Source of the DNA: Pseudobutyrivibrio xylanivorans DSM 14809
GTDB lineage: Bacteria; Bacillota; Clostridia; Lachnospirales; Lachnospiraceae
Reading direction: 5' to 3'
Assembly (NCBI RefSeq): GCF_900141825.1
Contig: NZ_FQYQ01000014.1
Location: 1-64,000 of the forward strand
Length of the DNA: 64,000 bases
Part shown: positions 8,901 to 28,248 of the stretch, one piece after another
Numbering within the stretch: the first letter of the stretch is position 1
Layout of the letters: every line of letters starts with the position of its first letter
Program-made: the position numbers and the translations under genes
Notes under the pieces: generated by a model
Databases searched by the model: none
Seen by the model: the letters and a program-made list of their open reading frames with translations, nothing else
Told to the model about the DNA's origin: nothing

Positions 8901-10164
8901 CGTTCCAGCTAACTATAACCGTGTAATGTTTACAGAGGACATGAAGAAGAATTACACAATTCTTTGTCCACAGATGTCACCTATCCACTTTGATTTGATT
9001 GAGCCTGCATTTAATGCTGCCGGCTACAATCTTGTGGTACCAGACATCCCTACACGTACATGCGTAGATGTTGGTCTTAAATATGTAAACAACGATGCAT
9101 GCTATCCTTCACTTATGGTTATTGGACAGCTCATGGCTGCCATCGACACAGGGGAATTTGATATGAGCCGTACTGCGCTTTTGATATCTCAGACTGGTGG
9201 TGGATGTCGTGCTTCAAACTACATCGGATTTATCCGTAGAGCTCTTGCTAAGGCTGGCTACCCAGATGTACCAGTTATCTCACTTAACCTTAGTGGACTT
9301 GAGCCAAACCCTGGATTTAAGCTTACACCAAGCCTTATCCAGCATGGACTTTACGCTCTTACATTTGGAGATATTCTTCTTCGTTGTGTTTACAGAGTTC
9401 GTCCATACGAAGCAGTTCCTGGTTCTACTAACGAGCTTCACGAGAAGTGGAAAAAGAAAATTGTAGAATTCGTTGGTACTCCAAAGATGCTTTCACATAG
9501 AAAGTACAAGAAGATGTGCCGTGAAATGATTCGTGATTTCGATAATCTTCCTATCATTGAAGGACTTGTTAAGCCAAGAGTTGGTATCGTAGGTGAGATT
9601 CTTGTTAAGTTCCTTCCAGCAGCAAACAATCATCTTGCTGATTTACTTGAGCAGGAAGGTGCTGAGGCAGTTGTTCCAGATCTTACAGACTTCTTACTCT
9701 ACTGCTTCTACGATTCAACATTTAAGGCTGATAATCTTGGAGCAAGCAAGATGTCTAAGCACATTGGAAATCTTGGAATTAAATTCTTTGAGTGGCTTAG
9801 AAGTGCTGCAAGAGATGAATTTAATAAGTCTAAGAGATTTACAGCTCCAGCTTACATTAAAGATACTGCTGAGCAGGCAAAGGATATTGTATCAATCGGA
9901 AATCAGACTGGTGAGGGTTGGTTCCTTACTGGCGAGATGCTTGAGCTCATTGAAAATGGAGCAAGCAATATTGTATGTATCCAGCCTTTCGGATGCTTAC
10001 CAAACCATGTAGTTGGTAAGGGTGTAATCAAGAGAATTCGACATGAGCATCCAGATGCAAACATTGTAGCCATCGACTACGATCCAGGTGCATCAGAGGT
10101 AAACCAGCTCAATAGAATTAAGCTTATGCTTTCTACAGCAAATAAAAACTTAAAAGATGCCTAG
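5908..10164 (+). CDS. Giant 2-hydroxyacyl-CoA dehydratase activase-related protein
   Basis: A 1418-residue protein with two BadF/HgdC-type ASKHA ATPase modules followed by dehydratase-related regions. Module 1 (about 8-265) has [30 protein letters not shown] and ARCGVF; module 2 (about 322-590) has [31 protein letters not shown] and GTRCTVF. Cysteines in both copies fit a [4Fe-4S] cluster site. A CQGCVNHC motif near residue 612 and the rest match the activase-associated DUF2229 and HgdB-like regions. The family uses ATP to inject an electron into 2-hydroxyacyl-CoA dehydratases; the substrate of this long form is unknown. No dehydratase subunits are adjacent. Monocistronic, own promoter. Ribosome site is weak (AAGAAAG); ATG at 5914 is an alternative start. 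Confidence 0.9.
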
Positions 10165-10301
10165 ATGACTTATCCAAGGTTTACATGCTCCCGCAAGGCA
10201 TCCTCCATATCAGCACATGGGTCCCCCCGCCGGCGTGGGCCCCACCCATGCACTGTATGGCGCCTCCTTGCTCGCGCTTACCGAGTCATCGAAAGTCATC
10301 T
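10163..10301. repeat. GC-rich structured element, copy A
   Basis: A 139-bp GC-rich island overlapping the stop codon of the activase gene. The ends pair (AGATGACTT 10163-10171 with AAGTCATCT 10293-10301), CCATA pairs TATGG (10205/10256), and CATGGGT pairs ACCCATG (10216/10244) around a C/G-rich loop. A second copy at 28109-28248 keeps the same architecture with different stem sequences. Shared unpaired-looking blocks include ACATGCTCCCGCA and a TCCT..GCGC.TACC segment. Transcribed strand unknown; may be an RNA or a small mobile palindrome. Confidence 0.65.
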
Positions 10302-10312
10302 ATAACATAATT

Positions 10313-10350
10313 AAAGCCAGCATGTACACGATGTACAGGCTGGCTTTTTT
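10313..10350 (+). terminator. Rho-independent terminator after the activase gene
   Basis: AAAGCCAGC and ATGTACA pair with TGTACA and GCTGGCTT, then TTTTTT. It closes the plus-strand transcript that carries the activase gene and element A. Confidence 0.85.
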
Positions 10351-10352
10351 CG

Positions 10353-11975
10353 TTATATGTTTGATGCGACGATGCGAAACTCGTATGGTTTGAGGTAGAA
10401 GTTATCCCGGTCGTATGCGTGATAGTTTCCGAAGATGATGCGGTCGCCATAGAACTCTACATGGCGATTTGATGAAGAGAGATTACAATAAATATAAAGG
10501 CGCTCTTCTTTTGCTTCCCTTGTAAATATGTACACGTCGTTTGGTGCTGCAACTCTTCTATAAACGCCCTCTGTTATAGCTTTTGAATTTTTCCTGAATT
10601 CTATCATCTGCTTGTAGAAATTCAGGATGCTATACTCATCTTCCTGTTCTGCTTCTACATTAATAAATGATTTATTTTCATTTACTCTTAACCAAGGTGT
10701 GCCTGTGGTAAATCCTGCGTTTTCTGAAGAATCCCACTGGATAGGAGTTCTTGCATTATCACGGGATGTTCTTAGGATTAATTTTCTTCGGAGCTTATGG
10801 GTTAATAATAATCGCTTCATTGCCTGATTAACATTATAGGATTCGATATCTTTAATATCCCTAAGACCTATAAAGTCTCCGTTAGTCATTCCAATTTCTT
10901 CACCTTCATAAATAAAAGGTATTCCTTTTAGGCTGAGGTTCAAGCCACATAAAAGCTTGGCACTCTTCTCCCAATACTCCTTCGTATTTCCGAAATGATT
11001 TACAGAACGAATCTGATCATGATTCTCTAAATAGTTTGCTGGAAATTCTAAAGCGTTTTGCCATTTATCTATAATTTTAATAAGCTTATTTGGCTTATAC
11101 TGTTTTTTGAACCATTTTATTCCACCTCTGCTATCTACATCCATGTGTTCAAAGAAGAATATTGCATCCAGCTCTCCTCTATCTTCATCACATAGAAGTT
11201 TAGCTTCATTTGGTGTAACAAATATAGTCTCTCCAACAATAAATGTTTTATATTTTGACCATACATCTTTATTGAATCTCTTTAGCAACTCGTGACAACC
11301 TTCTGTGTTAAGATAATGCTCACGACCTGTAAGAATTAATCTTCGTCTGCCATTTTTAATTGAATTCTTATATATGATGTTAATTACATCGCATCTGAAT
11401 CCAGCAATCCCCTTATCCAGCCAGAAACGCATCACATCTGTAATTTCATCATAAACATCTGGATTCTGCCAGTTTAGATCTGGCTGCTTCTCGCTGAACA
11501 GATGCATATAATAATCGCCATTTTCCGTCTTGGTCCAGGTTTTATTTCCAAAGAAGGAACCCCAGTTGTTAGGTGTATCGCTAAAGAAATAATAGTTCCT
11601 GTATTTTGGATCTCCTGCCAGGGCATTCTTAAACCATTCGTGCTCATCAGAGGTATGGTTTATGACCAGGTCCATAATTATTTTTATGCCTAGTCTCTTT
11701 GCTCGGCTGATTAGTCGCTCCATATCTTCCATTGTTCCAAATTCAGGATTAATGCCCTTGTAATCAGAAATATCGTAGCCATTATCATAGCCTGGGCTTG
11801 GATAAACCGGGCTGAGCCATATGACGTCAACTCCCAGATTCTTAAGATAATTAAGTTTAGAAATGATGCCTGGCAAATCGCCTATGCCATCGCCATTGCT
11901 ATCACAAAATGAGCGCGGATATATCTGATATACAACCGCGTTCTTCCACCATTTTTTTGTACCAGTTGTGGCCAT
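10353..11975 (-). CDS. GH13 alpha-glucosidase (oligo-1,6-glucosidase type)
   Basis: A 540-residue cytoplasmic glycoside hydrolase, no signal peptide. WWKNAVVYQIYPRSFCDSNG and GIGDLPGIISKLNYLK are typical of GH13 subfamily 31 exo-alpha-glucosidases. Catalytic segments: GFRCDV (nucleophile Asp), FIVGETIF (acid/base Glu), LENHDQIR (transition-state Asp). It probably releases glucose from isomalto-/malto-oligosaccharides; trehalose-6-phosphate hydrolase is a less likely alternative. The frame extends upstream to 12074, but the promoter (12034-12062) lies inside that extension and GGGGGA sits 5 nt before the ATG at 11975, so this start is chosen. Confidence 0.9.
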   Translation of the reverse strand: MATTGTKKWWKNAVVYQIYPRSFCDSNGDGIGDLPGIISKLNYLKNLGVDVIWLSPVYPSPGYDNGYDISDYKGINPEFGTMEDMERLISRAKRLGIKIIMDLVINHTSDEHEWFKNALAGDPKYRNYYFFSDTPNNWGSFFGNKTWTKTENGDYYMHLFSEKQPDLNWQNPDVYDEITDVMRFWLDKGIAGFRCDVINIIYKNSIKNGRRRLILTGREHYLNTEGCHELLKRFNKDVWSKYKTFIVGETIFVTPNEAKLLCDEDRGELDAIFFFEHMDVDSRGGIKWFKKQYKPNKLIKIIDKWQNALEFPANYLENHDQIRSVNHFGNTKEYWEKSAKLLCGLNLSLKGIPFIYEGEEIGMTNGDFIGLRDIKDIESYNVNQAMKRLLLTHKLRRKLILRTSRDNARTPIQWDSSENAGFTTGTPWLRVNENKSFINVEAEQEDEYSILNFYKQMIEFRKNSKAITEGVYRRVAAPNDVYIFTREAKEERLYIYCNLSSSNRHVEFYGDRIIFGNYHAYDRDNFYLKPYEFRIVASNI

Positions 11976-12033
11976 ACCGTTCCCCCGTGTGCTCATGCGC
12001 AATAAAATACCCTTGCGCTCTCCCCATAGACCT

Positions 12034-12062
12034 ATAATATAGTAATGCACATAGTATTTCAA
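12034..12062 (-). promoter_or_regulatory. Sigma-A promoter of the GH13 gene
   Basis: On the minus strand TTGAAA (12062-12057), a 17-bp spacer, and TATTAT (12039-12034). The transcript would start about 50 nt before ATG 11975, which rules out the longer reading frame. Confidence 0.8.
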
Positions 12063-12133
12063 CAATTTCTTCACACAATCATCACATTAGTTAGCAATTA
12101 TTGCGACAAATCGCATATTTTCATGATAATAGT

Positions 12134-12163
12134 AAAAAAACGGCAGACTAATCCGTCTGCCGT
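12134..12163 (-). terminator. Terminator of htpG
   Basis: ACGGCAGAC pairs with GTCTGCCGT around a 6-nt loop; on the minus strand a run of seven T follows. Confidence 0.85.
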
Positions 12164-12208
12164 TATAGATTTATGCAAGTGCACAACCTCTAATTTTTGT
12201 AACAATTC

Positions 12209-14290
12209 TTATTTTGTGAGTAACATCATGATCTTATTTGAACGTGCTACAAACTCAGTCATTGCCTCTGGCGAAAGAGGTGCATTAGCAATCTTAGCAA
12301 GATCATAAAGCTGAGCTGCAAATGTTGGAACGTTCTCTGAGTCCTTATTGTTAAGGATGTACTGAACAAGATCATTGTTTGCATTAAGGACAAGTGTCTC
12401 TGATGCAGAACCGAACATGTTCATATCCATGCCACCCATAGCGTACATTCTCATCATATCCTGCATACGACGACTCTCTTCTGATACTGTGAGCATAGAA
12501 GAAAGATCCTTGTTCTTGAACTTCTCAACCTTAACCTCAAGTCCTTCGTTATTAAGCGCCTTACGGAATACATCTGTAAGAGTCTCTGTCTCTGACTTAA
12601 GCTCGTCCTCTGATGTCTCCTCAACCATTGTGTCAGTAACATCAGCATCGATACGACAGAACTTATAGTTCTCATTGCGCTGTTCAAGCTGTGTGATGAA
12701 TGATGTATCAATAGCGTGGTCAAGGATGACTGCATTCTGTCCCTGCTCCTTGAACATATTTACATACTGAGACTGCTGCTGAAGATCAGTTACATAATAA
12801 ACTGTCTTTCTAGTATCTTCTGGCTCTTTAGTCTCATCAGCATCTTTGTTTTCTTCTACAACTTCTGCCTCTACAGCCTCGCCGTTTTCATCTGTAGCCT
12901 TCTCTTCCTCTTCCTTAACAAGAAGCTCTGGAAGTGTGGTGTATTTATCGTTGATGTCCTTGAATAAGATGTAGTCGTTCATCTTATCACAGAACTTTGT
13001 ATCCTTTAAGCAACCGAACTTGATGAATGGAGCGATATCGTCCCAATACTTCTCATAAGATTCCTTATCAGTCTTACACATGCCTGTAAGCTTGTCTGCA
13101 ACCTTCTTTGTAATGTACTCAGAAATCTTTGTAACGAAACCATCATTCTGAAGTGCAGAACGTGATACGTTAAGTGGAAGATCTGGGCAATCGATAACAC
13201 CCTTAAGAAGCATCAAGAACTCTGGAATAACTTCTTTAATGTTATCTGCGATGAATACCTGGTTATTGTAAAGCTTGATTGTACCTTCAATAGAATCGTA
13301 CTCTGTATTAATCTTAGGGAAGTATAAAATACCCTTGAGATTGAATGGATAATCCATGTTAAGGTGAATCCAGAAAAGAGGCTCCTTATAATCATGGAAT
13401 ACATCTCGGTAAAATGCCTTGTAATCTTCGTCTGTACACTCTGAAGGAGACTTAGTCCAAAGAGGATGTGTCTCATTAAGAGCAACTGGACGCTTAACAA
13501 TCTTAAGCTTATCCTTTGCAGGTGAAACCTCTACCTGTTCCTTTTCGCCATTCTCATTTTCTTTTTCTTCGAACTTTGCTTCTTCATGAATTTCTTCAAT
13601 GACCTTATCAGTATCTCTCTTGTCAGCTGCATCTATAGTTTCATATTCCTCTGGTGCATCCTTCTTTGAAAGATAAATCTCTGTAGGCATGAACGAACAG
13701 TACTTTGTGATGACTTCTCTTGCTCTGTATTCGTTTGCGAACTCGAGACAATCTTCATTTAAGAATAATGTGATCTTTGTACCTACCTGATTCCATTCGC
13801 CATCGCCCATCTCAAACTCTGTACCACCATCACATTCCCAGTGAACTGGTGTAGCACCTTCTTTGTAAGAAAGTGTATCGATGTGAACCTCATCTGCAAC
13901 CATGAATGCAGAATAAAAACCAAGACCAAAGTGACCAATAATCTGATCTGAATCTGCCTTATCTTTGTACTTCTCAAGGAAGTCTGTAGCACCTGAAAAT
14001 GCAATCTGATTAATGTACTCATCTACCTCTTCAGATGTCATTCCAAGTCCGTTATCGATGAATGTAAGTGTCTTGTCCTCAGGGCTAACGATTACCTGAA
14101 TCTTTGCCTTGTAATCAAGTGGAAGAGAATACTCTCCCATCATGTCTAACTTCTTAAGCTTTGTGATGGCATCACAGCCATTTGAAATAAGCTCTCTATA
14201 GAAAATGTCGTGATCAGAATATAACCACTTCTTAATCACTGGAAAAATATTTTCACTTGTAATAGATAAACTACCTTTTTTATTACTCAT
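12209..14290 (-). CDS. htpG: Hsp90-family molecular chaperone HtpG
   Basis: A 693-residue cytosolic ATP-dependent chaperone. The N-terminal GHKL ATPase domain has ELISNGCDA (Asn-box), DNGLGMT and GHFGLGFYSAFMVAD; the middle and C-terminal dimerisation domains follow, with an acidic Glu-rich insertion near residues 480-510. The frame is open to 14377, but AAGGAG 9 nt before ATG 14290 (MSNKKGSLSITSENIF) fits the usual family N-terminus. A sigma-A promoter and a perfect CIRCE operator lie upstream, so HrcA control is expected; in Bacillus subtilis htpG is not a CIRCE gene. It has its own terminator. Confidence 0.96.
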   Translation of the reverse strand: MSNKKGSLSITSENIFPVIKKWLYSDHDIFYRELISNGCDAITKLKKLDMMGEYSLPLDYKAKIQVIVSPEDKTLTFIDNGLGMTSEEVDEYINQIAFSGATDFLEKYKDKADSDQIIGHFGLGFYSAFMVADEVHIDTLSYKEGATPVHWECDGGTEFEMGDGEWNQVGTKITLFLNEDCLEFANEYRAREVITKYCSFMPTEIYLSKKDAPEEYETIDAADKRDTDKVIEEIHEEAKFEEKENENGEKEQVEVSPAKDKLKIVKRPVALNETHPLWTKSPSECTDEDYKAFYRDVFHDYKEPLFWIHLNMDYPFNLKGILYFPKINTEYDSIEGTIKLYNNQVFIADNIKEVIPEFLMLLKGVIDCPDLPLNVSRSALQNDGFVTKISEYITKKVADKLTGMCKTDKESYEKYWDDIAPFIKFGCLKDTKFCDKMNDYILFKDINDKYTTLPELLVKEEEEKATDENGEAVEAEVVEENKDADETKEPEDTRKTVYYVTDLQQQSQYVNMFKEQGQNAVILDHAIDTSFITQLEQRNENYKFCRIDADVTDTMVEETSEDELKSETETLTDVFRKALNNEGLEVKVEKFKNKDLSSMLTVSEESRRMQDMMRMYAMGGMDMNMFGSASETLVLNANNDLVQYILNNKDSENVPTFAAQLYDLAKIANAPLSPEAMTEFVARSNKIMMLLTK

Positions 14291-14411
14291 AATTTCTACT
14301 CCTTCTCTCGCTGTTACACTAACAAGCATGATGATTTCTACACTCGGCTGAAGAAAGCCTCGCTTAAGAAATATCATAGCTTGTTAGTTACAGCTATTTT
14401 CACTAAAACTT

Positions 14412-14440
14412 ATGATAATACTGCATGTTTACGAAGTCAA
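14412..14440 (-). promoter_or_regulatory. Sigma-A promoter of htpG
   Basis: On the minus strand TTGACT (14440-14435), 17-bp spacer, TATCAT (14417-14412). It starts 7 bp downstream of the CIRCE element and gives a leader of about 115 nt. Confidence 0.65.
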
Positions 14441-14447
14441 TAGAAAA

Positions 14448-14474
14448 TTAGCACTCTATAAATAAGAGTGCTAA
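14448..14474. promoter_or_regulatory. CIRCE operator (HrcA binding site)
   Basis: TTAGCACTC-N9-GAGTGCTAA, an exact match to the 9-9-9 CIRCE consensus recognised by the heat-shock repressor HrcA. It lies just upstream of the visible htpG -35 box, whereas most CIRCE sites overlap or follow the start of transcription. Confidence 0.95.
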
Positions 14475-14478
14475 TAAT

Positions 14479-14527
14479 ACACCTCATCAGTCACCTTCGG
14501 TGACAGCTTCCCCTCAAGGGGAAGCCT
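14479..14527. repeat. Interspersed palindromic repeat, complete short copy
   Basis: The cleanest copy in the window: CACCTCATCA, then GTCACC-TT-CGGTGAC, then GCTTCCCC-TCAA-GGGGAAGC. Two adjacent perfect hairpins in 49 bp. It fills the gap between the CIRCE site and the next terminator. The 14291-14595 gap holds only these elements. Confidence 0.9.
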
Positions 14528-14565
14528 ATAAAAAAAGAGTCATATCGTATATACGATATGACTCT
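14528..14565 (-). terminator. Terminator of the H1-like gene
   Basis: A perfect 30-bp palindrome (14536-14565; AGAGTCATATCGTAT and its complement), followed on the minus strand by a run of T. Confidence 0.85.
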
Positions 14566-14595
14566 ACGCTACATCATAATAAATAAAACAAAATC

Positions 14596-15033
14596 TTAAA
14601 GCTCTACAGATCCCACACTGTCCTTATTAGCTACGTAATAAATTTTACGCTCTTCAGGTTTAATGTAAATGTTTAACTCTTCAAGAGTCTTACCCTTGTA
14701 ATCCTTCTTGAACTGAGCCTGTGCTTTCTTTAAGCACTCAGCCTCTGTAAACTCACGATCCTGATACTGAACAACTGCTGTTGTTGTAACTGCTTTTTTC
14801 TTTGTTGTAGCTTTCTTAGCTGTTGTCTTTTTAGCAGTTGTTTTCTTAGCTGTTGTTTTCTTTGCAACTGTTTTTTTAGCAGCTATTTTTTTTGTTGCTA
14901 CTTCTTTCTTAACTTCGTCAACAACTTTCTTTGTAGTCGCTGGTGCACTAGCTACTGCAGACTTAACAGTTGTAGCTGCAGATGCTGCAGACTTCTTTAC
15001 ATCATCAACTGTAACCTTTGCATTTGTTACCAT
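14596..15033 (-). CDS. Lys/Ala/Thr-rich histone H1-like protein with conserved C-terminal domain
   Basis: A 145-residue basic protein. Residues 1-45 are Ala/Val/Lys-rich and likely helical (VDDVKKSAASAATTVKSAV); residues 46-80 are repeats of AKKTT/AKKTV, like the tails of histone H1 and Hc1-type nucleoid proteins; residues ~88-145 form a compact domain (YQDREFTEAECLKKAQAQF ... YIKPEERKIYYVANK) that resembles the DUF6465 family of Lachnospiraceae (from memory, not searched). Inference: a nucleic-acid or polyanion binding protein. Strong ribosome site AGGAGGGTG, 6 nt before ATG. Monocistronic between two intergenic regions with its own terminator. The repeat number may vary among strains. Confidence 0.75.
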   Translation of the reverse strand: MVTNAKVTVDDVKKSAASAATTVKSAVASAPATTKKVVDEVKKEVATKKIAAKKTVAKKTTAKKTTAKKTTAKKATTKKKAVTTTAVVQYQDREFTEAECLKKAQAQFKKDYKGKTLEELNIYIKPEERKIYYVANKDSVGSVEL

Positions 15034-15195
15034 TTTTTCACCCTCCTATTTGAGCAATAAAAGTTTTTGTTTTTTATTTAAATAGTATTATAGTCATTCT
15101 TTCTTTTAAATGCTAGTCTATTGTAAAAATTTTCTACCAATTTAACAAATAAAAACAAATTATAAAATGGATTTAATACAAAGTGCACTTATATT

Positions 15196-16182
15196 TTATA
15201 AATACTCACTTAATGTTTTGAAAAAACTTGCACTTGTAAGTTCAGAAACATCATCCGTAAATACGATATTGTTCCAAAGTTCTGTGTTCATATCAGAGAA
15301 ATTTTTCTCTTCCAAATCTTTTACAATATCAGCCAAAACCTGCTGACGTCTTTTCTCAATTATGACCTCTTTATTTGCCTCTGATAATTCCTCATTATAT
15401 TTATCCAGACACTGGAAAAAGTAGTATCCATTATCAGCAGCAATAGCTGTAGAAACTTCGTCTGTATCAAGGTTAAAAACCACATCATCAATAGCCTTGG
15501 AATACTCTCCTCTTGCGAAAGTAACCTGGTAAGAATCATGCTCTGTATATGTGGATGCAAGTCGCTCAAAAGTGTAGCCGTAATCAATCATGCCCTGGAT
15601 TTCATTTGCCTTTGCTTCGTCTGAAACAAACAAAACAAATGCTTCCATAACTCGTGCTTCATCTTCAGAAACTTCTTCATCTACAGAATCCATAAGTTCC
15701 TTGTAAACCTTTGTTGCAAGAGCATATTTTTTATAGGCGTTTGCTACATCCTTTTTTCTAACTCCGGTAAAAGAACGCTCTGCAGAATTAAGTGAAGAAT
15801 AATATTCTTTTGCTGCATCTTCACATGCTTTTTCTTCTTTTTCTGTAAGTGTTATTTCTTTCTCTTTTGCATATAAATTTAATACGTATACACGTGTTAA
15901 ATGTTCGATGGTTAAATCTTTAATTGAACCTGTCATAGTGTCGATATCAAAATCTTCAGTCCAAAGATTTACACCATCAACTGAACCATAAATATTTTTT
16001 TCATTTAAAAGATAAAGAAGTGCTTCCTTTTTTGAGCACTTCATATCACCAATTTTAAACACTGTATTTCTTCCACTGGAGGTGTCGAAATACACCGTCT
16101 TATCCTGGAATGTGCAGGCAGAAAATGACAAAGAAATAGATGCCACAAGACATGCTGCACAGATTCTTTTTGCTAACTTCAT
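15196..16182 (-). CDS. PrsA/SurA-like foldase lipoprotein (peptidyl-prolyl isomerase family)
   Basis: A 328-residue exported lipoprotein: signal peptide with lipobox LSFSAC, lipid on Cys22. Residues ~50-170 are helical, like the SurA N-domain, with the DMKCSKKEALLYLL start seen in this family. Residues ~175-290 look like a parvulin domain (VMEAFVLFVSDEAKANEIQGM ... TFARGEYSKAIDDVVFNLD ... YYFFQCLDK), with weak catalytic conservation. Probable role: folding of secreted proteins outside the membrane. It starts 2 bp after the stop of the 84-residue gene and is last in a run addB-addA-small protein-foldase; that order suggests cotranscription but no shared function. Confidence 0.8.
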   Translation of the reverse strand: MKLAKRICAACLVASISLSFSACTFQDKTVYFDTSSGRNTVFKIGDMKCSKKEALLYLLNEKNIYGSVDGVNLWTEDFDIDTMTGSIKDLTIEHLTRVYVLNLYAKEKEITLTEKEEKACEDAAKEYYSSLNSAERSFTGVRKKDVANAYKKYALATKVYKELMDSVDEEVSEDEARVMEAFVLFVSDEAKANEIQGMIDYGYTFERLASTYTEHDSYQVTFARGEYSKAIDDVVFNLDTDEVSTAIAADNGYYFFQCLDKYNEELSEANKEVIIEKRRQQVLADIVKDLEEKNFSDMNTELWNNIVFTDDVSELTSASFFKTLSEYL

Positions 16183-16184
16183 TT

Positions 16185-16439
16185 TTATCCCTCTACAATA
16201 AGATATCTTCCGTCGCCAATGGCAAAAACTTCCTCAGAGGAAAGAATTTCCTCCTCAGACATTCCTGAGATATCCATTGCATCTTCGAGATATTCCATTA
16301 CTTCTTTTTTATTTTTACATACAGTGGCGCAAACGTCCTCTAGGAACTCGGCTGCCTCCTGCTCATCTTCAGCCACCTTTTCTGGGAAGAGCTTAAGCTG
16401 ATTGTCAAGGAAAGCCTTGATTGTTAATTTGTCGTACAT
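16185..16439 (-). CDS. Small acidic protein of unknown function
   Basis: An 84-residue acidic, probably all-helical cytoplasmic protein (MYDKLTIKAFLDNQLKLFPE...). No signal, membrane segment or motif that I recognise. It overlaps the end of addA by 16 bp and ends 2 bp before the foldase gene, so it is translated in the same operon; AAAGGAG sits 7 nt before ATG. The tight coupling on both sides supports a real gene. I cannot assign a function. Confidence 0.75.
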   Translation of the reverse strand: MYDKLTIKAFLDNQLKLFPEKVAEDEQEAAEFLEDVCATVCKNKKEVMEYLEDAMDISGMSEEEILSSEEVFAIGDGRYLIVEG

Positions 16440-20047: not shown

Positions 20048-23000
20048 TTACTCCTTTGAATCCATTGATTCCTTCATAAGTTCTATTACATCTTCTTTTT
20101 TGCCAAGCTTTTGAAGCTTTTTAGCCTGATAGCCTTCCTCATTCTCATTGAAATGGCATACACTGCTAAAGCTACAGAATCGACATGCATCAATATCACC
20201 GAGCTTGGCTGGAGAACAATCAAAATCTCCCTCTATAATGTGCTTGGCAGTTTCAGCTGCAGAATACTTAGCATATTCCAAAACGGTATTTATTCCATCC
20301 AGGCTGACAGCATTTGTGTGAGCATCGATATTGCCATCTTTTTTCACACTGTAGGGTACGATAGATGACTTGGATGTCTGTCCATCTTCTGTACCTACTG
20401 TGGAGTCGTTGGCATATAAATCCTCCTCTTCTGCTGACAATAAGCCTTCCATTCTGCTGAGCTTTAATCGCTCCTCTTTTGTGCCAGCAAGAGTGCCTGT
20501 GCGCTCCACGTATTTGTTAGCCATCTCATAATAAAGCATGGCTGATGGATGCATGGATGCGTTTGGATATTTTTCCTTAAGCTTATCCAAAACAACGCCC
20601 ATGTATATTGGCAGCTGCATAGAAAGGCCATAGTAACATTCTTCCAAATCCAGCTTATGACCGCTTGATTTGTAATCAATGATTCGAACTGCCATATCAT
20701 CAGTATCTGTTAAATCTATTCTGTCCACCTTTCCTTTTAAGTTTGCAACAAGCTCGTCACTATCCCTGTCACGAATTTCTGCGGCAATTGTTTTCTCAAA
20801 ATAGGCTGGCTCAAATTCGCCTCGAGATACCTGAGTGGTGATAACCTCCACTGTGTGTCGCAGTGTATCTCTCATGGATTCTACGATATATTTCTGAGTT
20901 GAATCCTCCAGGGTGGAAACCTTAGCCATTGATTCAAAAGTCTGATTGAAGGCCGTATTTAAATATGCCTCCCGCTCATCCTCTGAAACATCCTTCCACT
21001 TCTTTCCATCTTTTTTCAGATTGTCAGAATAGTGCTCGATGGCAGCATGGTAAAAGTTTCCCATATCCATGCTGGACAGCTCGAATTTCTCCCTTTCCTG
21101 AAGCTTTAGTATGTATGTAAGAAAATATTTATAGGCACATTCGTTGTATAGTTCAAAACGCGAAACTGAACCTGATACAGTCTCATCTGAATTAAATGCC
21201 TCGTTAACCGCCAGCATAATGTCCTTTTCAACTGACTCTGGCTGATGCTGATAGAATGCTCCTGAAAGTATGGTATCCAACAGGTCTGCATCTTCAGACT
21301 TGGCCCATTCAACAAGATTCTTGAACATCTTTAAATCTTCAGGCGAGATTCCATCGATGCCTTTAACTGAAGCTTGATTGATAAGCTCGATAAGATAATT
21401 TACGGCACTCTTTTTTGACAATAGTCTGTCTGATATACTAAATTCCTCAATTTCCTTAAGTGAAACCTGAGGGAACATCTTTGTGATAACCTCTACGAGA
21501 TATGATGGATTTACTGATTTTCCATCAACATCTACTCGTGGCATTGTAATAAATAGCTGCTGATTTGGCTTTGTGAGCATCAGATATAAATAGAATCGCT
21601 GTCTAAATGATTTCTGTCTATCTGAAGGTGCCAGCTCAAAGCCCTGGTCCAGAAGTTGTTCTCTTTCAAGCTGTGAAAGAATACCTCCATTTTCCACCTT
21701 TTTGGGAATAGCATCATCAGATGCTCCAAGACAGAAAAGGACTTTGATATTTGAAAGTCTGGTTCGCTCGATATCACCTAAAATCACACTGTCATTTGCA
21801 GGTGGAATCACACCTATGGACGCAGCTGAAAGACCCGCCTCATAGATGTCGTGGAACTCATCTAACTTCATTTTTTCCTGGTCTAAGATGTTAACCATCT
21901 TATCAAGAATATCCATGATGATTGGATAAATCTGGCTATATTCTTTCGCCTTTACAGCATTATCATTTTCCTGGTAAAGATTTCCTCTCTCTTTGATTTT
22001 GTTTTCAACATCAAAATATATAAGGAATTTGTACAGTGCTGTAGCGATGTTTCTTACTGAATCTGTCTTATCTACTGCATTATCAAAATCAATAAATGGC
22101 TGAATGAATTTATTTCTGATTTCGTTTATACGAATCAAATCTTCATCCGAATTAAACTGATTAGAACGGATTGCAAACGGATGGAAATACTTCTTTTTTC
22201 CACGAATGCCCGTTGCTAAAACATAGTTTTCAAGAAAATCAATCTCATCATTTGTAAGGACTGTTAAATCTGTTCTTAAAAATCTAAACACATCCTCTTT
22301 TCTAAAATCATTGTCAAATATATCAAACAAAGAATCGATTGCCTCTGCCATTGGATGGAATAAAATCTCAGTTTTGGCATCAATAAAGTACGGTATCTTG
22401 TAGTCTGACCAAATCCCTGGCAAAAGATATCTGTAATTTTCCATGTTAGGTGCCACCACCGCAATATCCTTGTATCGCATTCCGTTACGAACAAGTTTGT
22501 TGATGGTGATTGCCACATATTTCAGCTCATCTCGAGGGCTTCTCAGGCTGATAAGCTTAATAGAATCAGCAGCATCCTCTCCCTCAAACTGTATGTCATT
22601 TCTAAAAATATTTCTCTCTAAAAACTGAAGTGGTGGGTTTTGTGAAAGCCATCCGTTTTCATCAGATATGAACACCGACTCATTAATCTCTTTGTCGATT
22701 CTCTTTGCAATCTGATTAAGCTTAACAGCAAATTCTGATGACATTGCAAAAACATCATCCTCAGATTTCATTTCAAAAAGCGCAGTATTTTCATCAGCGG
22801 TAATTGTAACTGCCACCTCATCGCAAATCTGAAGCATGTGCTCTACAAGCTGATATTGGATAGGTGTAAATCCAGTAAAACCATCTAAGACTACGGTAGA
22901 ACCTGTGACAATCTCTGAGCTGTCTAACATCTCATTTAGAGTAGATAATATGGACTCTGTGGTAACATATTTACCTTCTATGAAATCCAAAAATGCCTGA

Positions 23001-23488
23001 TAAATCACCAGCAAATCTGAAGCTTTTCTTCTGAAGCTTTCAGACATTACAGGAGAATTCATCATATTCAGAAGCTTTTCCGGGGTAATGTTGTACTGCG
23101 TCATCTCTGAAATAAGTGATTTAATCTGGGTGATATAGCTTACTCGTGTGATGTTGTTCCTGAGGGCTTTAATATCATCCAGTTTATTGTTTACAAGCTT
23201 GCGAATCACAAGAGACTTTCCGGTATCATCCAGAACAGACTGAACCGCTGTACCAAGCTCTTCAAAAACTCTGTACGCCAAACGATTAAATGAAAGAACA
23301 TCTATGTTCATAATGCATTTGTTTGGATGCATGGAAACAAGAAGTCGCTGAGTAGACATAGTGTACTGCTCAGGGACAATTACAAGATAATTCTTATCCA
23401 TATTTTCCATGGATTCTTCAATGATTCTGCTGTAAATGTTTGTAGATTTGCCGGAGCCTGAGCTGCCGACAATAAGAGATAACGACAT
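20048..23488 (-). CDS. addB: ATP-dependent helicase/deoxyribonuclease subunit B
   Basis: A 1146-residue AddB. Walker A VGSSGSGKST near residue 7; an inactivated helicase core that in this family scans for Chi; a C-terminal nuclease domain with RIIDYKSSGHKL and SMQLPIYM. Cysteines YNECAYKYFL near residue 792 and ACRFCSFSSVCHF near 1105 are the four-Cys set that holds a [4Fe-4S] cluster linking the nuclease ends. Ribosome site AGGAG. First gene of the addB-addA operon; a long hairpin lies just upstream. Confidence 0.96.
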   Translation of the reverse strand: MSLSLIVGSSGSGKSTNIYSRIIEESMENMDKNYLVIVPEQYTMSTQRLLVSMHPNKCIMNIDVLSFNRLAYRVFEELGTAVQSVLDDTGKSLVIRKLVNNKLDDIKALRNNITRVSYITQIKSLISEMTQYNITPEKLLNMMNSPVMSESFRRKASDLLVIYQAFLDFIEGKYVTTESILSTLNEMLDSSEIVTGSTVVLDGFTGFTPIQYQLVEHMLQICDEVAVTITADENTALFEMKSEDDVFAMSSEFAVKLNQIAKRIDKEINESVFISDENGWLSQNPPLQFLERNIFRNDIQFEGEDAADSIKLISLRSPRDELKYVAITINKLVRNGMRYKDIAVVAPNMENYRYLLPGIWSDYKIPYFIDAKTEILFHPMAEAIDSLFDIFDNDFRKEDVFRFLRTDLTVLTNDEIDFLENYVLATGIRGKKKYFHPFAIRSNQFNSDEDLIRINEIRNKFIQPFIDFDNAVDKTDSVRNIATALYKFLIYFDVENKIKERGNLYQENDNAVKAKEYSQIYPIIMDILDKMVNILDQEKMKLDEFHDIYEAGLSAASIGVIPPANDSVILGDIERTRLSNIKVLFCLGASDDAIPKKVENGGILSQLEREQLLDQGFELAPSDRQKSFRQRFYLYLMLTKPNQQLFITMPRVDVDGKSVNPSYLVEVITKMFPQVSLKEIEEFSISDRLLSKKSAVNYLIELINQASVKGIDGISPEDLKMFKNLVEWAKSEDADLLDTILSGAFYQHQPESVEKDIMLAVNEAFNSDETVSGSVSRFELYNECAYKYFLTYILKLQEREKFELSSMDMGNFYHAAIEHYSDNLKKDGKKWKDVSEDEREAYLNTAFNQTFESMAKVSTLEDSTQKYIVESMRDTLRHTVEVITTQVSRGEFEPAYFEKTIAAEIRDRDSDELVANLKGKVDRIDLTDTDDMAVRIIDYKSSGHKLDLEECYYGLSMQLPIYMGVVLDKLKEKYPNASMHPSAMLYYEMANKYVERTGTLAGTKEERLKLSRMEGLLSAEEEDLYANDSTVGTEDGQTSKSSIVPYSVKKDGNIDAHTNAVSLDGINTVLEYAKYSAAETAKHIIEGDFDCSPAKLGDIDACRFCSFSSVCHFNENEEGYQAKKLQKLGKKEDVIELMKESMDSKE

Positions 23489-23505
23489 ATAATTCTCCTA
23501 AACAC

Positions 23506-23603
23506 AAAAGCACCTCGTCACGCTCTCAAGCCTAAGATATTGCTTTCAGTCACTAGATGTTCCTTTCAGCAACACTTAGAGCTTGATAGCTACGGGTGCT
23601 CTC
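23506..23603 (-). terminator. Long imperfect hairpin between amidohydrolase and addB
   Basis: On the minus strand AGCACC, TCAAGC and TTGCT pair in order with AGCAA, GCTTGA and GGTGCT, making a hairpin of about 95 nt followed by TTTTGTGTTT. It ends 20 bp before addB. It may terminate the amidohydrolase transcript or act as an addB leader. Confidence 0.5.
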
Positions 23604-23629
23604 TTATTTGTAATTAGTGCGTATTTACG

Positions 23630-25177
23630 CTATTGTGGAAACATTCCTCGAAGCATGGTGGCCATTGAGCCGGTTCGAGAACGTTTATATGGTTTTCCTT
23701 TGAGATAAAGCTCTGAAACATTTATTGTCTTTAGCTCATCCACTGGAATCTCATATGGATTCTTATCGAGAACTGCCAAATCACAGCTCTTACCCATTTC
23801 GAGAGTACCTCGTTCCTTCTCATCGAAGCATGAAAGCGCACCATTTATTGTGGCCATTTTCAGTGCCTCGTATACAGAAACAGATTCTTCTGGGTTAGCA
23901 TTGTTACATGCATCATGAATCCACATAATTGGGTCCGGATCTGAAGCTGGTGCATCTGAATTAAAGCACACCTTTATTCCCATATCCGTAATAGTCTTGA
24001 GAGGATTAATTCCCTTTGCTCTATCCTCAGAGATTATTCCATCGACAAATTCCTTCACGCCATCAATATGTGTAAGAAGAGATGGCTGTACAGAAATCAT
24101 AATGTTGTATTTAGCGCAAATCTTCAATGCCTTTTCTGTAGGCAATGAACCATGCAGGATAATGTGTCTGTGGTCGTAACGAGGATAATCCTCAAGGGCC
24201 ATAGAAATAGCATTGACAGCCTGTTCAAATGCAGCATCACCAACTGCATGTAAAGCGATTTGATAGCCGCTTCTGTTGGCATGGATGCAGAAATTCTGAA
24301 CTTCAGCGTCACTAAAATATGAAACACCCTTATTATTAATAGTTACATAGCTGTCGTTTAATGCAGCATCCTTATTGGCGAAGGTTCCGTCAAGATTTCC
24401 AAATACAACTCTTGTCATATCCTTCTTTGCAATTTTGTCCACATTAGAACACTGATAAGCAACTCTTACCTGCATTCCGTTATCAAGTCCCTTGGCAACA
24501 GAACGTTCCATATCGAAATCGTAATCACGAATGAATCCCATTCCGCTGGCTGAGCAAATCAGACCGATGCCTTTGCTGGCAAGAAAATCCGATGTCTCCA
24601 CCATAGAATCGATAACCTTTTTAGTGGACATACCATGAGTGATGAATTCACAGGCTGTTAAAAATGCTTCCTGCTTAAGCTCACCGGTATCTTCATTATA
24701 ACCTCTAAGGTTGGAAACCTTTGATTTGATAGCATCCAGGAACAGGCTGTTAGCCACACCAGAATGAGCATCATGCTTAATAATGAAGGCTGGCTTTTCA
24801 GGGCATGCCACATCCATCTGCTCCTTAAGAATAAGGTGGCCCTCGGATACGGCAAACTCAGTGGCGCCAAAACCAACTATTATATTCTCTCTGGTACGGG
24901 TTGCATATTCCTTGAGCTGTTCCAAAATCTTAGCATTGGAATCCGTATCATTGATAGGAAACATCTTATGCAAAACGGAAAAACCCGAATAATGCATATG
25001 TGTATCAGTGAAAGCCGGAACCAAAACATTGTTACCCAGTTCAATAGGTGGTACAACTTCGTATTGTGTAGGGAGCTTAGTTCCAATGTAGGCTATACGG
25101 CCCTCTCGCTCAACTAAATAATTTGCAACGGTATTGTTTTCATCACAAGTTAATATTGTTCCATGAAATACCTGCAT
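23630..25177 (-). CDS. Amidohydrolase family 3 protein (YtcJ-like)
   Basis: A 515-residue metal-dependent hydrolase of the amidohydrolase superfamily. An N-terminal small beta domain (MQVFHGTILTCDENN) leads to the metal motif FTDTHMHYSGF (HxH), then YQIALHAVGDAA and IILHGS histidines, and the C-terminal NSDAPASDPDP aspartate. The family hydrolyses amide-type bonds in varied small molecules and the substrate cannot be read from sequence. No signal peptide. It lies downstream of the phosphofructokinase gene on the same strand with a 39-bp gap and may be cotranscribed. Confidence 0.85.
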   Translation of the reverse strand: MQVFHGTILTCDENNTVANYLVEREGRIAYIGTKLPTQYEVVPPIELGNNVLVPAFTDTHMHYSGFSVLHKMFPINDTDSNAKILEQLKEYATRTRENIIVGFGATEFAVSEGHLILKEQMDVACPEKPAFIIKHDAHSGVANSLFLDAIKSKVSNLRGYNEDTGELKQEAFLTACEFITHGMSTKKVIDSMVETSDFLASKGIGLICSASGMGFIRDYDFDMERSVAKGLDNGMQVRVAYQCSNVDKIAKKDMTRVVFGNLDGTFANKDAALNDSYVTINNKGVSYFSDAEVQNFCIHANRSGYQIALHAVGDAAFEQAVNAISMALEDYPRYDHRHIILHGSLPTEKALKICAKYNIMISVQPSLLTHIDGVKEFVDGIISEDRAKGINPLKTITDMGIKVCFNSDAPASDPDPIMWIHDACNNANPEESVSVYEALKMATINGALSCFDEKERGTLEMGKSCDLAVLDKNPYEIPVDELKTINVSELYLKGKPYKRSRTGSMATMLRGMFPQ

Positions 25178-25216
25178 TTGTCCCCTCCAAAAACTAATAG
25201 AATTTATATCTTTTTA

Positions 25217-26458
25217 TTATTTTTTGCCTGTTGGTCTGTAGATGTGTCTTGGAATACCATCTACCATGATAGGTGAAACATCGCCCTGAATAAGCGGTCT
25301 TACATATGTAATAAATGCCTCTGTTACATATGTACCATCATGTGTAATCCAGTTACGAGGTACAAGCTTCTCGTCGTTGGCAATCTTGTGAACATCCTTA
25401 ACCTCTGTTCCGCACTGGTAAGGATCATCAGAATGACGGATAAGTGTAACCATCTTTCCTGTATCGCCTTCGTCTGCAGCAAGAACAGCTGCACCACCAA
25501 CCTGATATGCTTCAAGGATATCTACACGAGATGCAAGGTGTGAGCCTGCACGCTGTAATGTAGATAGCTCGATAGCTCTTGTCTTGCAACCAACTTCAGC
25601 TGCAATGTAATTGCAAAGATATGCTGCTGTACCTGTAAGCTGTTTATGATTGAATGCATCAACAAACTCTACATTATTTCCGAGCTCACATACATATTTT
25701 CCGTCCTTTGTATGGATACCTTCAGAAATACAAATTACGACAGATGACTGTGTCTTTAAAAGCTTGAGAACTCTCTCTTTGAATTTTTCAATATCAAATG
25801 GAACCTCTGGCAAATAAATCAAATCTGGGCCTTCACAATCTTCTCCCTTTGCAAGGATGGAAGCACCTGTAAGCCAACCTGCGTTACGTCCCATAATTTC
25901 AACGATTGTAACAAGTCCCTTGTCATACTCTAAGCAATAGCTATCACGGATGATTTCCTTGACAGATGTACCGATGTATTTAGCGGCACTACCAAAGCCT
26001 GGTGTGTGATCTGTAAGAGCCAAGTCATTATCAATTGTCTTTGGACAACCAATAAACCTGATATCAGAACCTGTAAGAATAGCGTAGTCGGAAAGCTTTT
26101 TGATGGTGTCCATGGAATCATTTCCACCAATGTAGATAAGAGCTTCGATTTCCAGCTTCTTAAGAATACCAAAGATTTTCTCGTATGTTGCCATATCCTC
26201 GTGGATTTCTGGAAGCTTAAAACGGCAAGAGCCTAAATAAGCTGCTGGTGTACGTTTTAAGAGTTCTACATCCAAATCGTTCTTAATGTAGTCTGAAAGA
26301 TCGATGTACTGCTCATCCATCAACCCTTTGATACCATGCAGCATGCCATAAACTTTTCCAGCTCCACGGTCCTTAGCTGTTCTGTAAACTCCCGCTAAAG
26401 AAGAGTTTATTGCGGCGGTTGGTCCGCCTGATTGTCCCACAATTACGTTTCCAGTCAT
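25217..26458 (-). CDS. pfp: PPi-dependent 6-phosphofructokinase
   Basis: A 413-residue phosphofructokinase converting fructose 6-phosphate and a phosphoryl donor to fructose 1,6-bisphosphate in glycolysis. VGQSGGPTAAINSSL is the N-terminal phosphate loop; YIGGNDSMDT replaces the ATP-type GGDGS and CPKTIDNDL has Lys where ATP enzymes have Gly, both marks of pyrophosphate use; VTIVEIMGRNAGWLTG binds the sugar phosphate. The length fits the long PPi-type clade. GGGAGGTAATATGTA precedes ATG. Donor assignment is by motif and would need an assay; some long-clade enzymes use ATP. Confidence 0.9.
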   Translation of the reverse strand: MTGNVIVGQSGGPTAAINSSLAGVYRTAKDRGAGKVYGMLHGIKGLMDEQYIDLSDYIKNDLDVELLKRTPAAYLGSCRFKLPEIHEDMATYEKIFGILKKLEIEALIYIGGNDSMDTIKKLSDYAILTGSDIRFIGCPKTIDNDLALTDHTPGFGSAAKYIGTSVKEIIRDSYCLEYDKGLVTIVEIMGRNAGWLTGASILAKGEDCEGPDLIYLPEVPFDIEKFKERVLKLLKTQSSVVICISEGIHTKDGKYVCELGNNVEFVDAFNHKQLTGTAAYLCNYIAAEVGCKTRAIELSTLQRAGSHLASRVDILEAYQVGGAAVLAADEGDTGKMVTLIRHSDDPYQCGTEVKDVHKIANDEKLVPRNWITHDGTYVTEAFITYVRPLIQGDVSPIMVDGIPRHIYRPTGKK

Positions 26459-26558
26459 TACATATTACCTCCCAATCATTTATTGTCAAAAATATTAAGA
26501 CCGATAATCATATGTCTTCTTCCCAAATCCCCATAAGAGAAAAAGACCCGCCGATATG

Positions 26559-26819
26559 TTAATCATCCTCTGGAATGTCACGAAAATGTCCTGCGATGAT
26601 GTCACATAAGCACCAAATAGCTCCTCCAACTGTTGATGCAATAAAAATCTTAATAATGTTTACCAAAAGCGTCACCGCAGTGAGAGTGCCGCTGGTAAAA
26701 CTAATAATTAGCCAATAAACAGAGCGTACGAATAATAGATATCCGCCTATGTACAACCCTAAAACTGTGCCAAGAATGCTAAACAGCACAGCTAACGCCC
26801 TCTTTGCATTCTTCTTCAT
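26559..26819 (-). CDS. Small two-helix membrane protein
   Basis: An 86-residue protein starting MKKNAKRALAVLFSILGTVL. Hydrophobic segments at about 9-30, 34-52 and 56-75 suggest two or three membrane helices; the tail HFRDIPEDD is acidic and probably cytoplasmic. The frame continues upstream to 26897, but GGAG lies 7 nt before the ATG at 26819 and the longer form would overlap the phosphatase gene. It follows the PAP2 gene by 26 bp, so it is likely cotranscribed. I do not recognise the family. Confidence 0.7.
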   Translation of the reverse strand: MKKNAKRALAVLFSILGTVLGLYIGGYLLFVRSVYWLIISFTSGTLTAVTLLVNIIKIFIASTVGGAIWCLCDIIAGHFRDIPEDD

Positions 26820-26845
26820 ATATAATCTCCGTAAAATTGTATCTA

Positions 26846-27382
26846 TTAAAATGGTAGCATAATGAGTCCAAAAACGCCACAAAAAAACCAAAAGCATATT
26901 ATGCCAATGAGGATTGCCATAATTGCTCCTGCCACGACATCCTTGATAAAATGGACTCCTCCTACCACTCTGATAACTGCCAAACCAATGCCAAGTATCA
27001 GTAAAAATACACCTACGGGGATTGAAACCTGGAAAAATGTAATCGCAACCATGAAAATGGAAAAGACATGGCGACTAGGAAAGCTCTTTCCTTTTGTATC
27101 CTTGTGTAAAGCTGGAGTGAAATTATAAACCTCGTATGGACGAGGAGCGCTGGCCACTTTTCTAAATAAGCTTACCAGCACAAATGAAACTCCTGGTATT
27201 ACAATACTTCTGTACAAAAGGGTAGCTCCTATCTTAGGAATAGAGATAGCTGCATAAATAAGCAGCCCAAGATAAAATAAAATCGTAATATAAGTAATGG
27301 CCTTGTCCAGCACATTTAGTACTGTAACAAGACCACTATTATTTTTTATTGAAGTTGATAATTCAGAATATGAAATCTTCAT
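26846..27382 (-). CDS. PAP2-family membrane phosphatase
   Basis: A 178-residue integral membrane protein with about five helices. It carries the lipid-phosphatase signature in order: KVASAPRPYE (motif 1, Lys...Arg-Pro), FPSRHVFS (motif 2, Ser-Arg-His), RVVGGVHFIKDVVAG (motif 3, His nucleophile and Asp). The family dephosphorylates phosphatidic acid, undecaprenyl-PP or related lipids on the outer face of the membrane; the substrate here is open. It starts 6 bp after the CarD-type gene and is followed by a small membrane protein, suggesting a three-gene operon. Confidence 0.88.
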   Translation of the reverse strand: MKISYSELSTSIKNNSGLVTVLNVLDKAITYITILFYLGLLIYAAISIPKIGATLLYRSIVIPGVSFVLVSLFRKVASAPRPYEVYNFTPALHKDTKGKSFPSRHVFSIFMVAITFFQVSIPVGVFLLILGIGLAVIRVVGGVHFIKDVVAGAIMAILIGIICFWFFCGVFGLIMLPF

Positions 27383-27388
27383 TTATTT

Positions 27389-27922
27389 TTATGCACCTAC
27401 AAGTAAATTATTTGAAAAATGTATCTTTACGGCGTCTTCAAATAAATGCTGTGCATAAGGGATATCCTTTCCCATTGAAAAAGCCATTTCCTCATAAAGC
27501 TTACGACCTGCAACGCTTAAAATCTTCTCATCTAATGCCATGACCTTCTTGCCAGATTCGATACGCTGCCACTTTCTAATAAGAACAGTCTTTACCACGC
27601 GTGCCAATGACTCTGGTGTAAACTCAGCCATAACCTCTTTGAACTTCTCCTGAAGCATTCTGTCGTTTGGCTCATTGATACATTCGATATCATCAATATT
27701 ATCAAGAATTTTGTTAAATGTAGTAACATCAGCTACCGGACGTAATCTAATAGTCGAACCAGTAATTGGAGTGAATACTTTTGCTCCAGCTTTGAATACA
27801 GGTGCCATGCAGTAGTAGGTCTTTTTTGAACCCTTGCCCATAAGCTCCATATCATCGATGTCCTCAATTTTACAAACACCACTTCCCTCATGAACTAAAA
27901 AATCGCCTACCTGATAATTCAT
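27389..27922 (-). CDS. CarD/CdnL-family transcription regulator
   Basis: A 177-residue protein. Residues 1-60 are the CarD/TRCF RNA-polymerase interaction domain (YQVGDFLVHEGSGVCKIEDI ... YYCMAPVFKAGAKVFTPI), a Tudor-like fold that binds the RNAP beta subunit; residues ~70-177 are helical, as in CdnL, where this part contacts promoter DNA. Family members stabilise open complexes, notably at rRNA promoters, or act under stress. AAGGATGG lies 4 nt before ATG. It is the first gene of a likely operon with the PAP2 phosphatase. A structured element (28109-28248) and the RNase P RNA lie upstream. Confidence 0.88.
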   Translation of the reverse strand: MNYQVGDFLVHEGSGVCKIEDIDDMELMGKGSKKTYYCMAPVFKAGAKVFTPITGSTIRLRPVADVTTFNKILDNIDDIECINEPNDRMLQEKFKEVMAEFTPESLARVVKTVLIRKWQRIESGKKVMALDEKILSVAGRKLYEEMAFSMGKDIPYAQHLFEDAVKIHFSNNLLVGA

Positions 27923-28108
27923 TTTTCACCATCCTTCTAAAGCATAAACAACGTGTCCCTCCATAACTCTTTTCTCCCATTACTTAATGTAATTATAACA
28001 CGATTTTAGTCTACAGGACACAGAAAATTCACATTCGTTAATAATTCACACGAAAACTTACGAAAATGTAGAATCTGTTGGTGATAATAAACTATAGTCA
28101 GACAATTC

Positions 28109-28248
28109 GCATGGTCAATATAAATCACATGCTCCCGCAGGCCATCTCCCATACTCGAGCAAGGGAACCTTCCCGCCCGGTGTAGGCCCCTCCCTTGCTC
28201 GGCATGGGGCCCTCCTGCTAGCGCCTACCTAGTTTACTTAGACCATGC
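28109..28248. repeat. GC-rich structured element, copy B
   Basis: A 140-bp homologue of the element at 10163-10301 in the same orientation. Outer stem GCATGGTC (28109-28116) / GACCATGC (28241-28248); middle stem CCCAT/ATGGG (28148/28204); apical stem GAGCAAGGGA (28157-28166) / TCCCTTGCTC (28191-28200). Stem bases differ from copy A at most positions but pair in both. It lies between rnpB and the CarD gene; the rest of the 27923-28294 gap shows nothing else I can name. Confidence 0.65.

What the first reader, a model, noticed from the sequence alone, without database searches (positions are those of the whole stretch)
10163..28248. Two GC-rich 140-nt elements with covarying stems
Copies at 10163-10301 and 28109-28248 share order and spacing of three nested stems while the stem sequences differ: outer AGATGACTT/AAGTCATCT versus GCATGGTC/GACCATGC; apical CATGGGT/ACCCATG versus GAGCAAGGGA/TCCCTTGCTC; middle CCATA/TATGG versus CCCAT/ATGGG. 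Compensatory change in several helices is the hallmark of selected RNA or single-strand DNA structure. Loops and linkers (ACATGCTCCCGCA, TCCT..GCGC) are conserved instead. GC content is far above the surroundings. One copy overlaps the stop of the activase gene, the other lies between rnpB and a CarD-type gene. I match it to no known family.
Basis: seen in the sequence. Interest (0 to 1): 0.82.

Follow-up and report, generated by a model that had tools for sequence, protein, structure and literature searches.

The report
Hairpin DNA repeats nested in hairpins
The two elements are copies of a small dispersed DNA repeat found in the rumen-bacterium genus Pseudobutyrivibrio; its outer stem has a different sequence at each site yet is usually self-complementary, and the pattern of changes points to a DNA-level rather than an RNA-level cause.

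Summary
In detail: both elements are real, homologous and have covarying stems. They are two of 15 clear copies in this genome. The family occurs in 27 of 29 genomes of the genus and in 0 of 32 and 0 of 198 genomes of other genera. Of 80 listed exact hits in named genomes (82 found), 79 are titled Pseudobutyrivibrio and one Butyrivibrio fibrisolvens. No Rfam match.

The outer stem belongs to the site: 89 of 102 sampled copies have at least 6 uninterrupted Watson-Crick pairs at fixed spacing, against 3.7 on average (largest 9) with shuffled flanks; copies with cores at least 95% identical share about as few stem letters as distant copies.

A second family, B (two copies in this window), has the same design and occurs in 28 of 29 genus genomes; A and B nest in each other. 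Wobble pairs are rare on both strands (B outer helix: 424 WC, 2 G·T, 3 A·C), whereas rnpB of the same genus shows 287 G·U and 2 A·C.

Best reading: non-autonomous hairpin DNA that settles in, or replaces, tips of existing hairpins. Against it: 21 of 42 orthologous places show no hairpin, and the mobiliser is unknown.

The parts
10163..10301 (+). Family A copy 1, outer stem included
   Evidence: Sequence; model R1 hit 10174-10290, 111.4 bits (the copy is in the model)
10163..10171 (+). Copy 1, left arm of the outer stem AGATGACTT (pairing runs on to TAGATGACTT)
10293..10301 (+). Copy 1, right arm of the outer stem AAGTCATCT
28109..28248 (+). Family A copy 2, outer stem included, downstream of the RNase P RNA gene
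   Evidence: Sequence; model R1 hit 28118-28237, 109.9 bits (the copy is in the model)
28109..28116 (+). Copy 2, left arm of the outer stem GCATGGTC
28241..28248 (+). Copy 2, right arm of the outer stem GACCATGC
14307..14398 (+). Family B copy 1
   Evidence: Pattern; model R2 hit, 78.5 bits (the copy is in the model)
23511..23600 (+). Family B copy 2
   Evidence: Pattern; model R2 hit, 77.1 bits (the copy is in the model)

Best explanation
Both elements are copies of a non-autonomous, dispersed hairpin DNA element (family A) of Pseudobutyrivibrio. Shown: it is multi-copy, was found only in this genus among the genomes searched, is present or absent at orthologous sites, has a conserved two-armed core, and has an outer stem that belongs to the site and not to the core; it occurs nested with a second family, B. 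Inferred: it moves as hairpin DNA (single-stranded or cruciform) and settles in, or replaces, the tip of a hairpin already present (a B element or an intrinsic terminator), whose stem becomes its outer stem. Inferred: the near-perfect Watson-Crick pairing is kept by processes acting on DNA (recognition of the DNA hairpin, or one arm copied onto the other), not by selection on an RNA. The enzyme is not known.
For: Multi-copy and polymorphic. Stem independent of core: 47 pairs of copies with core identity of at least 95% agree at 2.0 of 6 inner stem letters, against 1.70 for 3317 pairs below 80%. Stem present far beyond shuffles: 89 of 102 against mean 3.68. Nesting, read by eye: A within B arms in L211 and L220, B within an A hairpin with an 11-bp outer stem in L275. 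Of 42 orthologous places of 14 copies in three relatives, 10 were labelled B and 7 another hairpin. DNA-like pairing: B 1671 WC, 33 G-T, 29 A-C, against rnpB 1483, 287, 2; A outer stems 997 WC, 4 G-T, 14 A-C, 71 other mismatches.
Against: 21 of the 42 orthologous places show no hairpin, and neither arm of window copy 2 is seen in G009, G005 or G026, so a pre-existing hairpin with the same stem was never caught. No site gave a clean before-and-after pair. No mobiliser and no autonomous copy were found. In one case (L063, G025) A sits inside a B outer stem with a stem of its own not seen in B of G019, as if A brought its stem along. Within-core pairs of A were not tested for wobble.
Confidence: 0.5

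Rival explanations
1. A inserts at sites without any hairpin, and the outer stem arises afterwards: template switching during replication copies one flank as the complement of the other. The covariation is then a product of mutation.
For: Half of the orthologous places show no hairpin. Double changes without G-U steps dominate in B. Template switching is a published way to make perfect stems and simultaneous double changes (PMC8794818, passages read). Around copy 1 the stem TAGATGA/TCATCTA looks like the TCATCTA end of the shared frame mirrored onto the other side (by eye).
Against: Stems start at a fixed distance from the core while the conserved, unpaired spacers stay uncorrected; copying would be expected to erase them. 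A lies inside B arms in several cases.
Confidence: 0.25
2. A and B are structured RNAs (mRNA leaders, 3' ends or small RNAs) kept by selection, spread by duplication or gene conversion, with compensatory changes in the RNA.
For: Dense covariation, conserved internal loops, and orientation bias to genes: both neighbours antisense to the C-rich strand 31 times, sense 7 times, of 61 copies scored.
Against: Few G-U pairs on either strand, unlike rnpB; frequent flips such as T-A to A-T (35 and 30 copies); copies absent at many orthologous sites; near-identical cores with unrelated stems.
Confidence: 0.15
3. A is a REP-like or MITE-like repeat moved by a Y1 (RAYT) transposase or another insertion-sequence transposase that recognises its ends.
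For: Small, non-coding, dispersed and hairpin-forming, as REPs are (PMC3733652, passages read).
Against: Y1_Tnp (PF01797) was found in 10 of 29 genus genomes and not in this one, nor in G019 with 53 A hits. The outer inverted repeat is not shared between copies. Other transposase families were not searched.
Confidence: 0.1

Closest known systems
REP / BIME / REPIN palindromic repeats
   Same: Short, dispersed, intergenic hairpin repeats with complementary changes in stems (PMC3733652, passages read)
   Different: Longer (about 140 nt), outer stem specific to the site, no Y1 gene in 19 of 29 genomes; that paper reports frequent G-T pairs in GTAG stems, while here they are rare
Insertion sequences that target REPs (IS1397, ISKpn1, IS621, ISPpu9)
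   Same: Mobile DNA that goes into palindromes (PMC1525189, passages read)
   Different: Those are autonomous and recognise given REP families; A has no gene and its stems have unrelated sequences
MITEs
   Same: Small non-autonomous repeats (definition recalled; review listed, not read)
   Different: Terminal repeats of MITEs are shared between copies; the outer repeat here is not
Template-switch hairpins (quasipalindromes)
   Same: Perfect stems and simultaneous double changes (PMC8794818, passages read)
   Different: That is a mutation process and not a dispersed family; here cores are conserved and multi-copy
Integron attC sites
   Same: Sequence-variable stems around a fixed plan (recalled)
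   Different: Conserved outer boxes are the recalled mark of attC; here the outer arms vary; no integrase search was made

Membership tests
Structured RNA family (Rfam) | Match at the curated score | tested here: not met
   Window at gathering score: 4 matches, none at the elements. Lax search of copy 2 only: two chance-level matches far below their cut-offs
Structured RNA family (Rfam) | Stems that tolerate G-U on the transcribed strand | tested here: not met
   B 33 G-T and 29 A-C of 1781 cells; rnpB 287 and 2 of 1778. Both structures are RNAalifold predictions, which favour G-U on the strand given
Structured RNA family (Rfam) | A discrete transcript | not testable with these tools
   No expression data
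GTAG REP / RAYT system | Y1 (RAYT) transposase in the genome | tested here: not met
   PF01797 in 10 of 29 genus genomes, not in the own genome
GTAG REP / RAYT system | Short palindrome ending in GTAG | tested here: not met
   A cores are about 90-105 nt and longer with stems; outer ends vary. A GTAG occurs inside B near the stem but not as a fixed terminus
MITE | Terminal inverted repeats shared by copies | tested here: not met
   Outer arms of near-identical cores agree at 2.0 of 6 letters
MITE | Target-site duplication | tested here: inconclusive
   Sites compared by eye gave no clean empty-site pair
Integron attC | Conserved R boxes and an IntI integrase | not tested
   No integrase search; variable outer arms speak against it

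The most novel reading that the evidence does not exclude
A class of mobile DNA that chooses targets by shape, not sequence: it enters or swaps the tips of DNA hairpins of any sequence (terminators, other repeat families, its own kin), so that hairpins nest in hairpins and carry covariation that mimics a conserved RNA.
Probability: 0.35. Interest if true: 0.82.

Novelty: new variant of a known kind. Interest (0 to 1): 0.62.

Why it matters
Covariation is widely read as proof of a functional RNA. This genus holds hundreds of hairpins with dense covariation but few G-U steps on either strand, measured against rnpB of the same genus: a natural test set for telling DNA-level from RNA-level covariation. 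If target choice by hairpin shape is confirmed, it would be an unusual way for mobile DNA to find harmless sites, and would explain how layered intergenic hairpins are built.

Tried and rejected
Rfam: no match at the elements. Y1 transposase as mobiliser: found in 10 of 29 genomes only; other transposase families were not searched. Autonomous version: of 155 distinct left arms (one mismatch allowed) in the loci held, 145 have a right arm within 250 nt; of the other 10, only L358 lists a farther one (810 nt), and its near right arm is merely diverged by eye; loci of 0.5-8 kb limit this search. Other collections: the 25-nt exact pattern is in no viral contig; copy 2 has no blastn match in plasmids or phages; copy 1 was not sent there. 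Strand test on A outer stems: 14 A-C against 4 G-T, but 71 other mismatches make it weak. Replication-strand bias: GC skew sampled in G003 and G010 changes sign several times and gene direction goes with it, so no claim. Bare frame hairpins (TCC-G..., stem, TCAT or TCAC) with no insert: none among 46 hits in 940 kb held, which is not a random sample. Alignment A5 of rnpB mixed strands and was not used.

Limits of the counts. The 102 A copies are distinct by flank, come from loci fetched for several purposes, include some orthologs, and leave out copies that the pattern missed; a stricter version of the locating script had missed 38 loci (not used for counts). The 47 close pairs include orthologous ones with equal stems, such as L018-L061 and L114-L122; pairs whose cores differ by more than 12 nt in length were put in the lowest class. 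rnpB: 25 of 28 loci located, 5 left out for length, 20 used. Genus and family searches with over 40 genomes use stricter filters and a capped number of candidates, so absence is not absolute and copy numbers are lower bounds. In one search the B label uses a loose pattern and L146 and L176 may be wrong; L174 is masked by N and counts as none; L157 and L159 count as none but look by eye like A with the core deleted. Behind rnpB, 27 of 28 loci were readable: the own one has the A core, one other (L091, G024) matches loosely with up to 3 mismatches although R1 finds no A in G024, and 25 have none.

Full report
OBSERVATION. GC is 0.583 and 0.586 in a window of 0.394, and both fold better than shuffles on either strand. 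No Rfam family matches them (copy 2 also with lax limits).

MORE COPIES. Each copy, used as a DNA query on its own genome, brings up the other and further members. A covariance model, R1, was built from 14 of the 15 copies (L014 left out). In the own genome it gives 16 strong or split hits that make 15 elements (L014 is hit twice), one short fragment (E 3.6e-5) and two weak hits. Over 61 genomes it hits 27 of 29 of the genus and 0 of 32 others; over 200 genomes of the family it hits the two genus members and 0 of 198 others. A 25-nt exact pattern in named genomes found 82 stretches; of the 80 listed, 79 are titled Pseudobutyrivibrio and one Butyrivibrio fibrisolvens 16/4. The same pattern is in no viral contig, and copy 2 has no match in plasmids or phages.

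ANATOMY. Family A reads: outer arm; conserved spacer of about 12 nt (near ATCCAAGTTTTA); CATGCTCCCGCAAGCCATCTCCCAT; variable apical hairpin; ATGGGGCCCTCTTGCTCGCGCTTGCCAA; spacer of 8-9 nt; outer arm. Two own-genome copies, L014 and L015, carry extra GC-rich hairpins within the core (by eye).

THE OUTER STEM BELONGS TO THE SITE. Of 102 sampled copies, 89 have at least 6 uninterrupted Watson-Crick pairs at the fixed spacers; 200 shuffles of the right flanks give 3.68 on average and at most 9. Of 47 pairs of copies with cores at least 95% identical, the six inner stem letters agree at 2.0 on average, against 1.70 for the 3317 pairs in the lowest class. L006, L017 and L019, all in the own genome, have cores 97-99% alike and stems GCAACTCA, AGGCGG and ATGCGGC. 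At the copy 1 site, G005 carries A with the stem CATAGATGACT/AGTCATCTATG, sharing TAGATGACT with G000, but with another apical hairpin. At the site of L050 (G009) and L114 (G010), one pair of the outer stem differs by a double change, A-T to G-C, with cores of different subtype.

SECOND FAMILY. Orthologous sites often held another hairpin family, B: TTACRCTCTCAAGCC ... AGAGCTTGATAGCTA between variable outer arms. Model R2 finds B in 28 of 29 genus genomes, up to 144 hits in one with the number of scored candidates capped, and in 0 of 198 genomes of other genera. Two copies lie in this window. On alignment A3 (21 copies) 93.8% of cells pair, with 86 double changes against 28 in shuffles; on the model-fitted alignment A4 (72 distinct copies) 95.7%, with 349 against 100. 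Covariation is thus beyond doubt; its cause is the question.

FRAME AND NESTING. A scan for TCC-G(5 nt) ... matching arm-TCAT or TCAC gave 46 hits: 17 labelled A, 18 B and 11 unlabelled, of which by eye 7 look like B, 3 (L056, L057, L222) like other hairpin families and 1 like chance. All 17 A copies there have the same orientation to the frame; in the 102-copy sample 15 of 89 stems have the frame in that orientation and 0 in the other. By eye, A lies within B arms in L211 and L220, and probably in L117, L125 and L227, three species at one site where G009, G002 and G012 carry B. L275 shows B within an A hairpin whose outer stem TGTGAAATAGC/GCTATTTCACA is intact. At another site G019 has A followed by B, while G025 has what looks like an A remnant followed by the same B outer stem filled with an A copy in the other direction, which has a stem of its own; this last case fits the hairpin-tip model less well.

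SITES IN RELATIVES. For 14 own-genome copies in three relatives, 42 places: 4 A, 10 B (loose pattern), 7 another perfect hairpin of at least 8 bp that exceeds 20 shuffles, 21 none, one of them masked. Sites are thus often hairpin sites, but half are not. For copy 2, 25 of 26 readable relatives' rnpB loci have no A core and one has a loose match not supported by R1; G009, G005 and G026 show neither arm. L157 and L159, counted as none, look like A with the core deleted and the stem kept; L159 has GCAAATAAC/GTTATTTGC where G000 has GCAAATAGC/GCTATTTGC. No clean before-and-after pair was found.

DNA OR RNA. An RNA stem evolves largely through G-U pairs on the transcribed strand. rnpB from 20 genus genomes gives 1483 WC, 287 G-U, 2 A-C and 6 other cells. 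B gives 1671 WC, 33 G-T, 29 A-C and 48 other; its outer helix 424, 2, 3 and 3. Both structures come from RNAalifold on one given strand, so the bias towards G-U on that strand is alike. Frequent swaps in B are flips such as T-A to A-T (35 and 30 copies) and G-C to T-A (51 and 20), which do not pass through G-U. Outer stems of A: 997 WC, 4 G-T, 14 A-C, 71 other. The pairing is close to symmetric between strands, as expected of DNA. Template switching between arms is a published source of such changes (PMC8794818, passages read).

ORIENTATION AND MOBILISER. With A in its C-rich orientation, both neighbouring ORFs run against it in 31 and with it in 7 of 61 copies scored by a simple ORF rule. Y1 transposases are in 10 of 29 genomes and not in the own one. 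No autonomous copy was seen within the limits of the loci held.

LITERATURE. Nine searches of an open-access library listed no description of these repeats. Passages of PMC8794818, PMC1525189 and PMC3733652 were read; all other papers were seen as listings only. Subscription papers are not covered.

CONCLUSION. A real, abundant set of dispersed DNA hairpins of one genus, with site-derived outer stems and hairpin-in-hairpin nesting; nearest kind REP-like and MITE-like repeats, whose tested defining features it fails. How the stems arise (hairpin target, 0.5; later arm copying, 0.25) is not settled.

Noticed in passing
rnpB loci L100-L103 (G003, G002, G006, G025); also L094 and L090: One hairpin loop of RNase P RNA (ACCCGC-loop-GCGGG in the window's copy) carries inserts of about 90-120 nt in four species and shorter hairpins in two others; none looked like A.
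   Followed up: partly
L057, L222 and L056: Further hairpin families in the same TCC-stem / stem-TCA frame, unlike A and B.
   Followed up: no
L312, L314, L317 and L318: At one gene junction four species carry long hairpins between TAGATGAGC- or AAATGAGC-like and GCGGA-like ends, unlike A and B.
   Followed up: no
L160 and L191: Another repeat with CACCTCATCAGTCA at one end sits next to the A site of L002 in G005 and G014.
   Followed up: no
window 10162-10302: The outer stem TAGATGA/TCATCTA of copy 1 looks like the frame end TCATCTA mirrored onto the left side, a possible trace of arm copying.
   Followed up: no
G008:C2, G006:C305, G016:C84 and G013:C11: A and B copies lie tail to tail, about 20-45 nt apart, in four species (55-loci L055, L231).
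   Followed up: no
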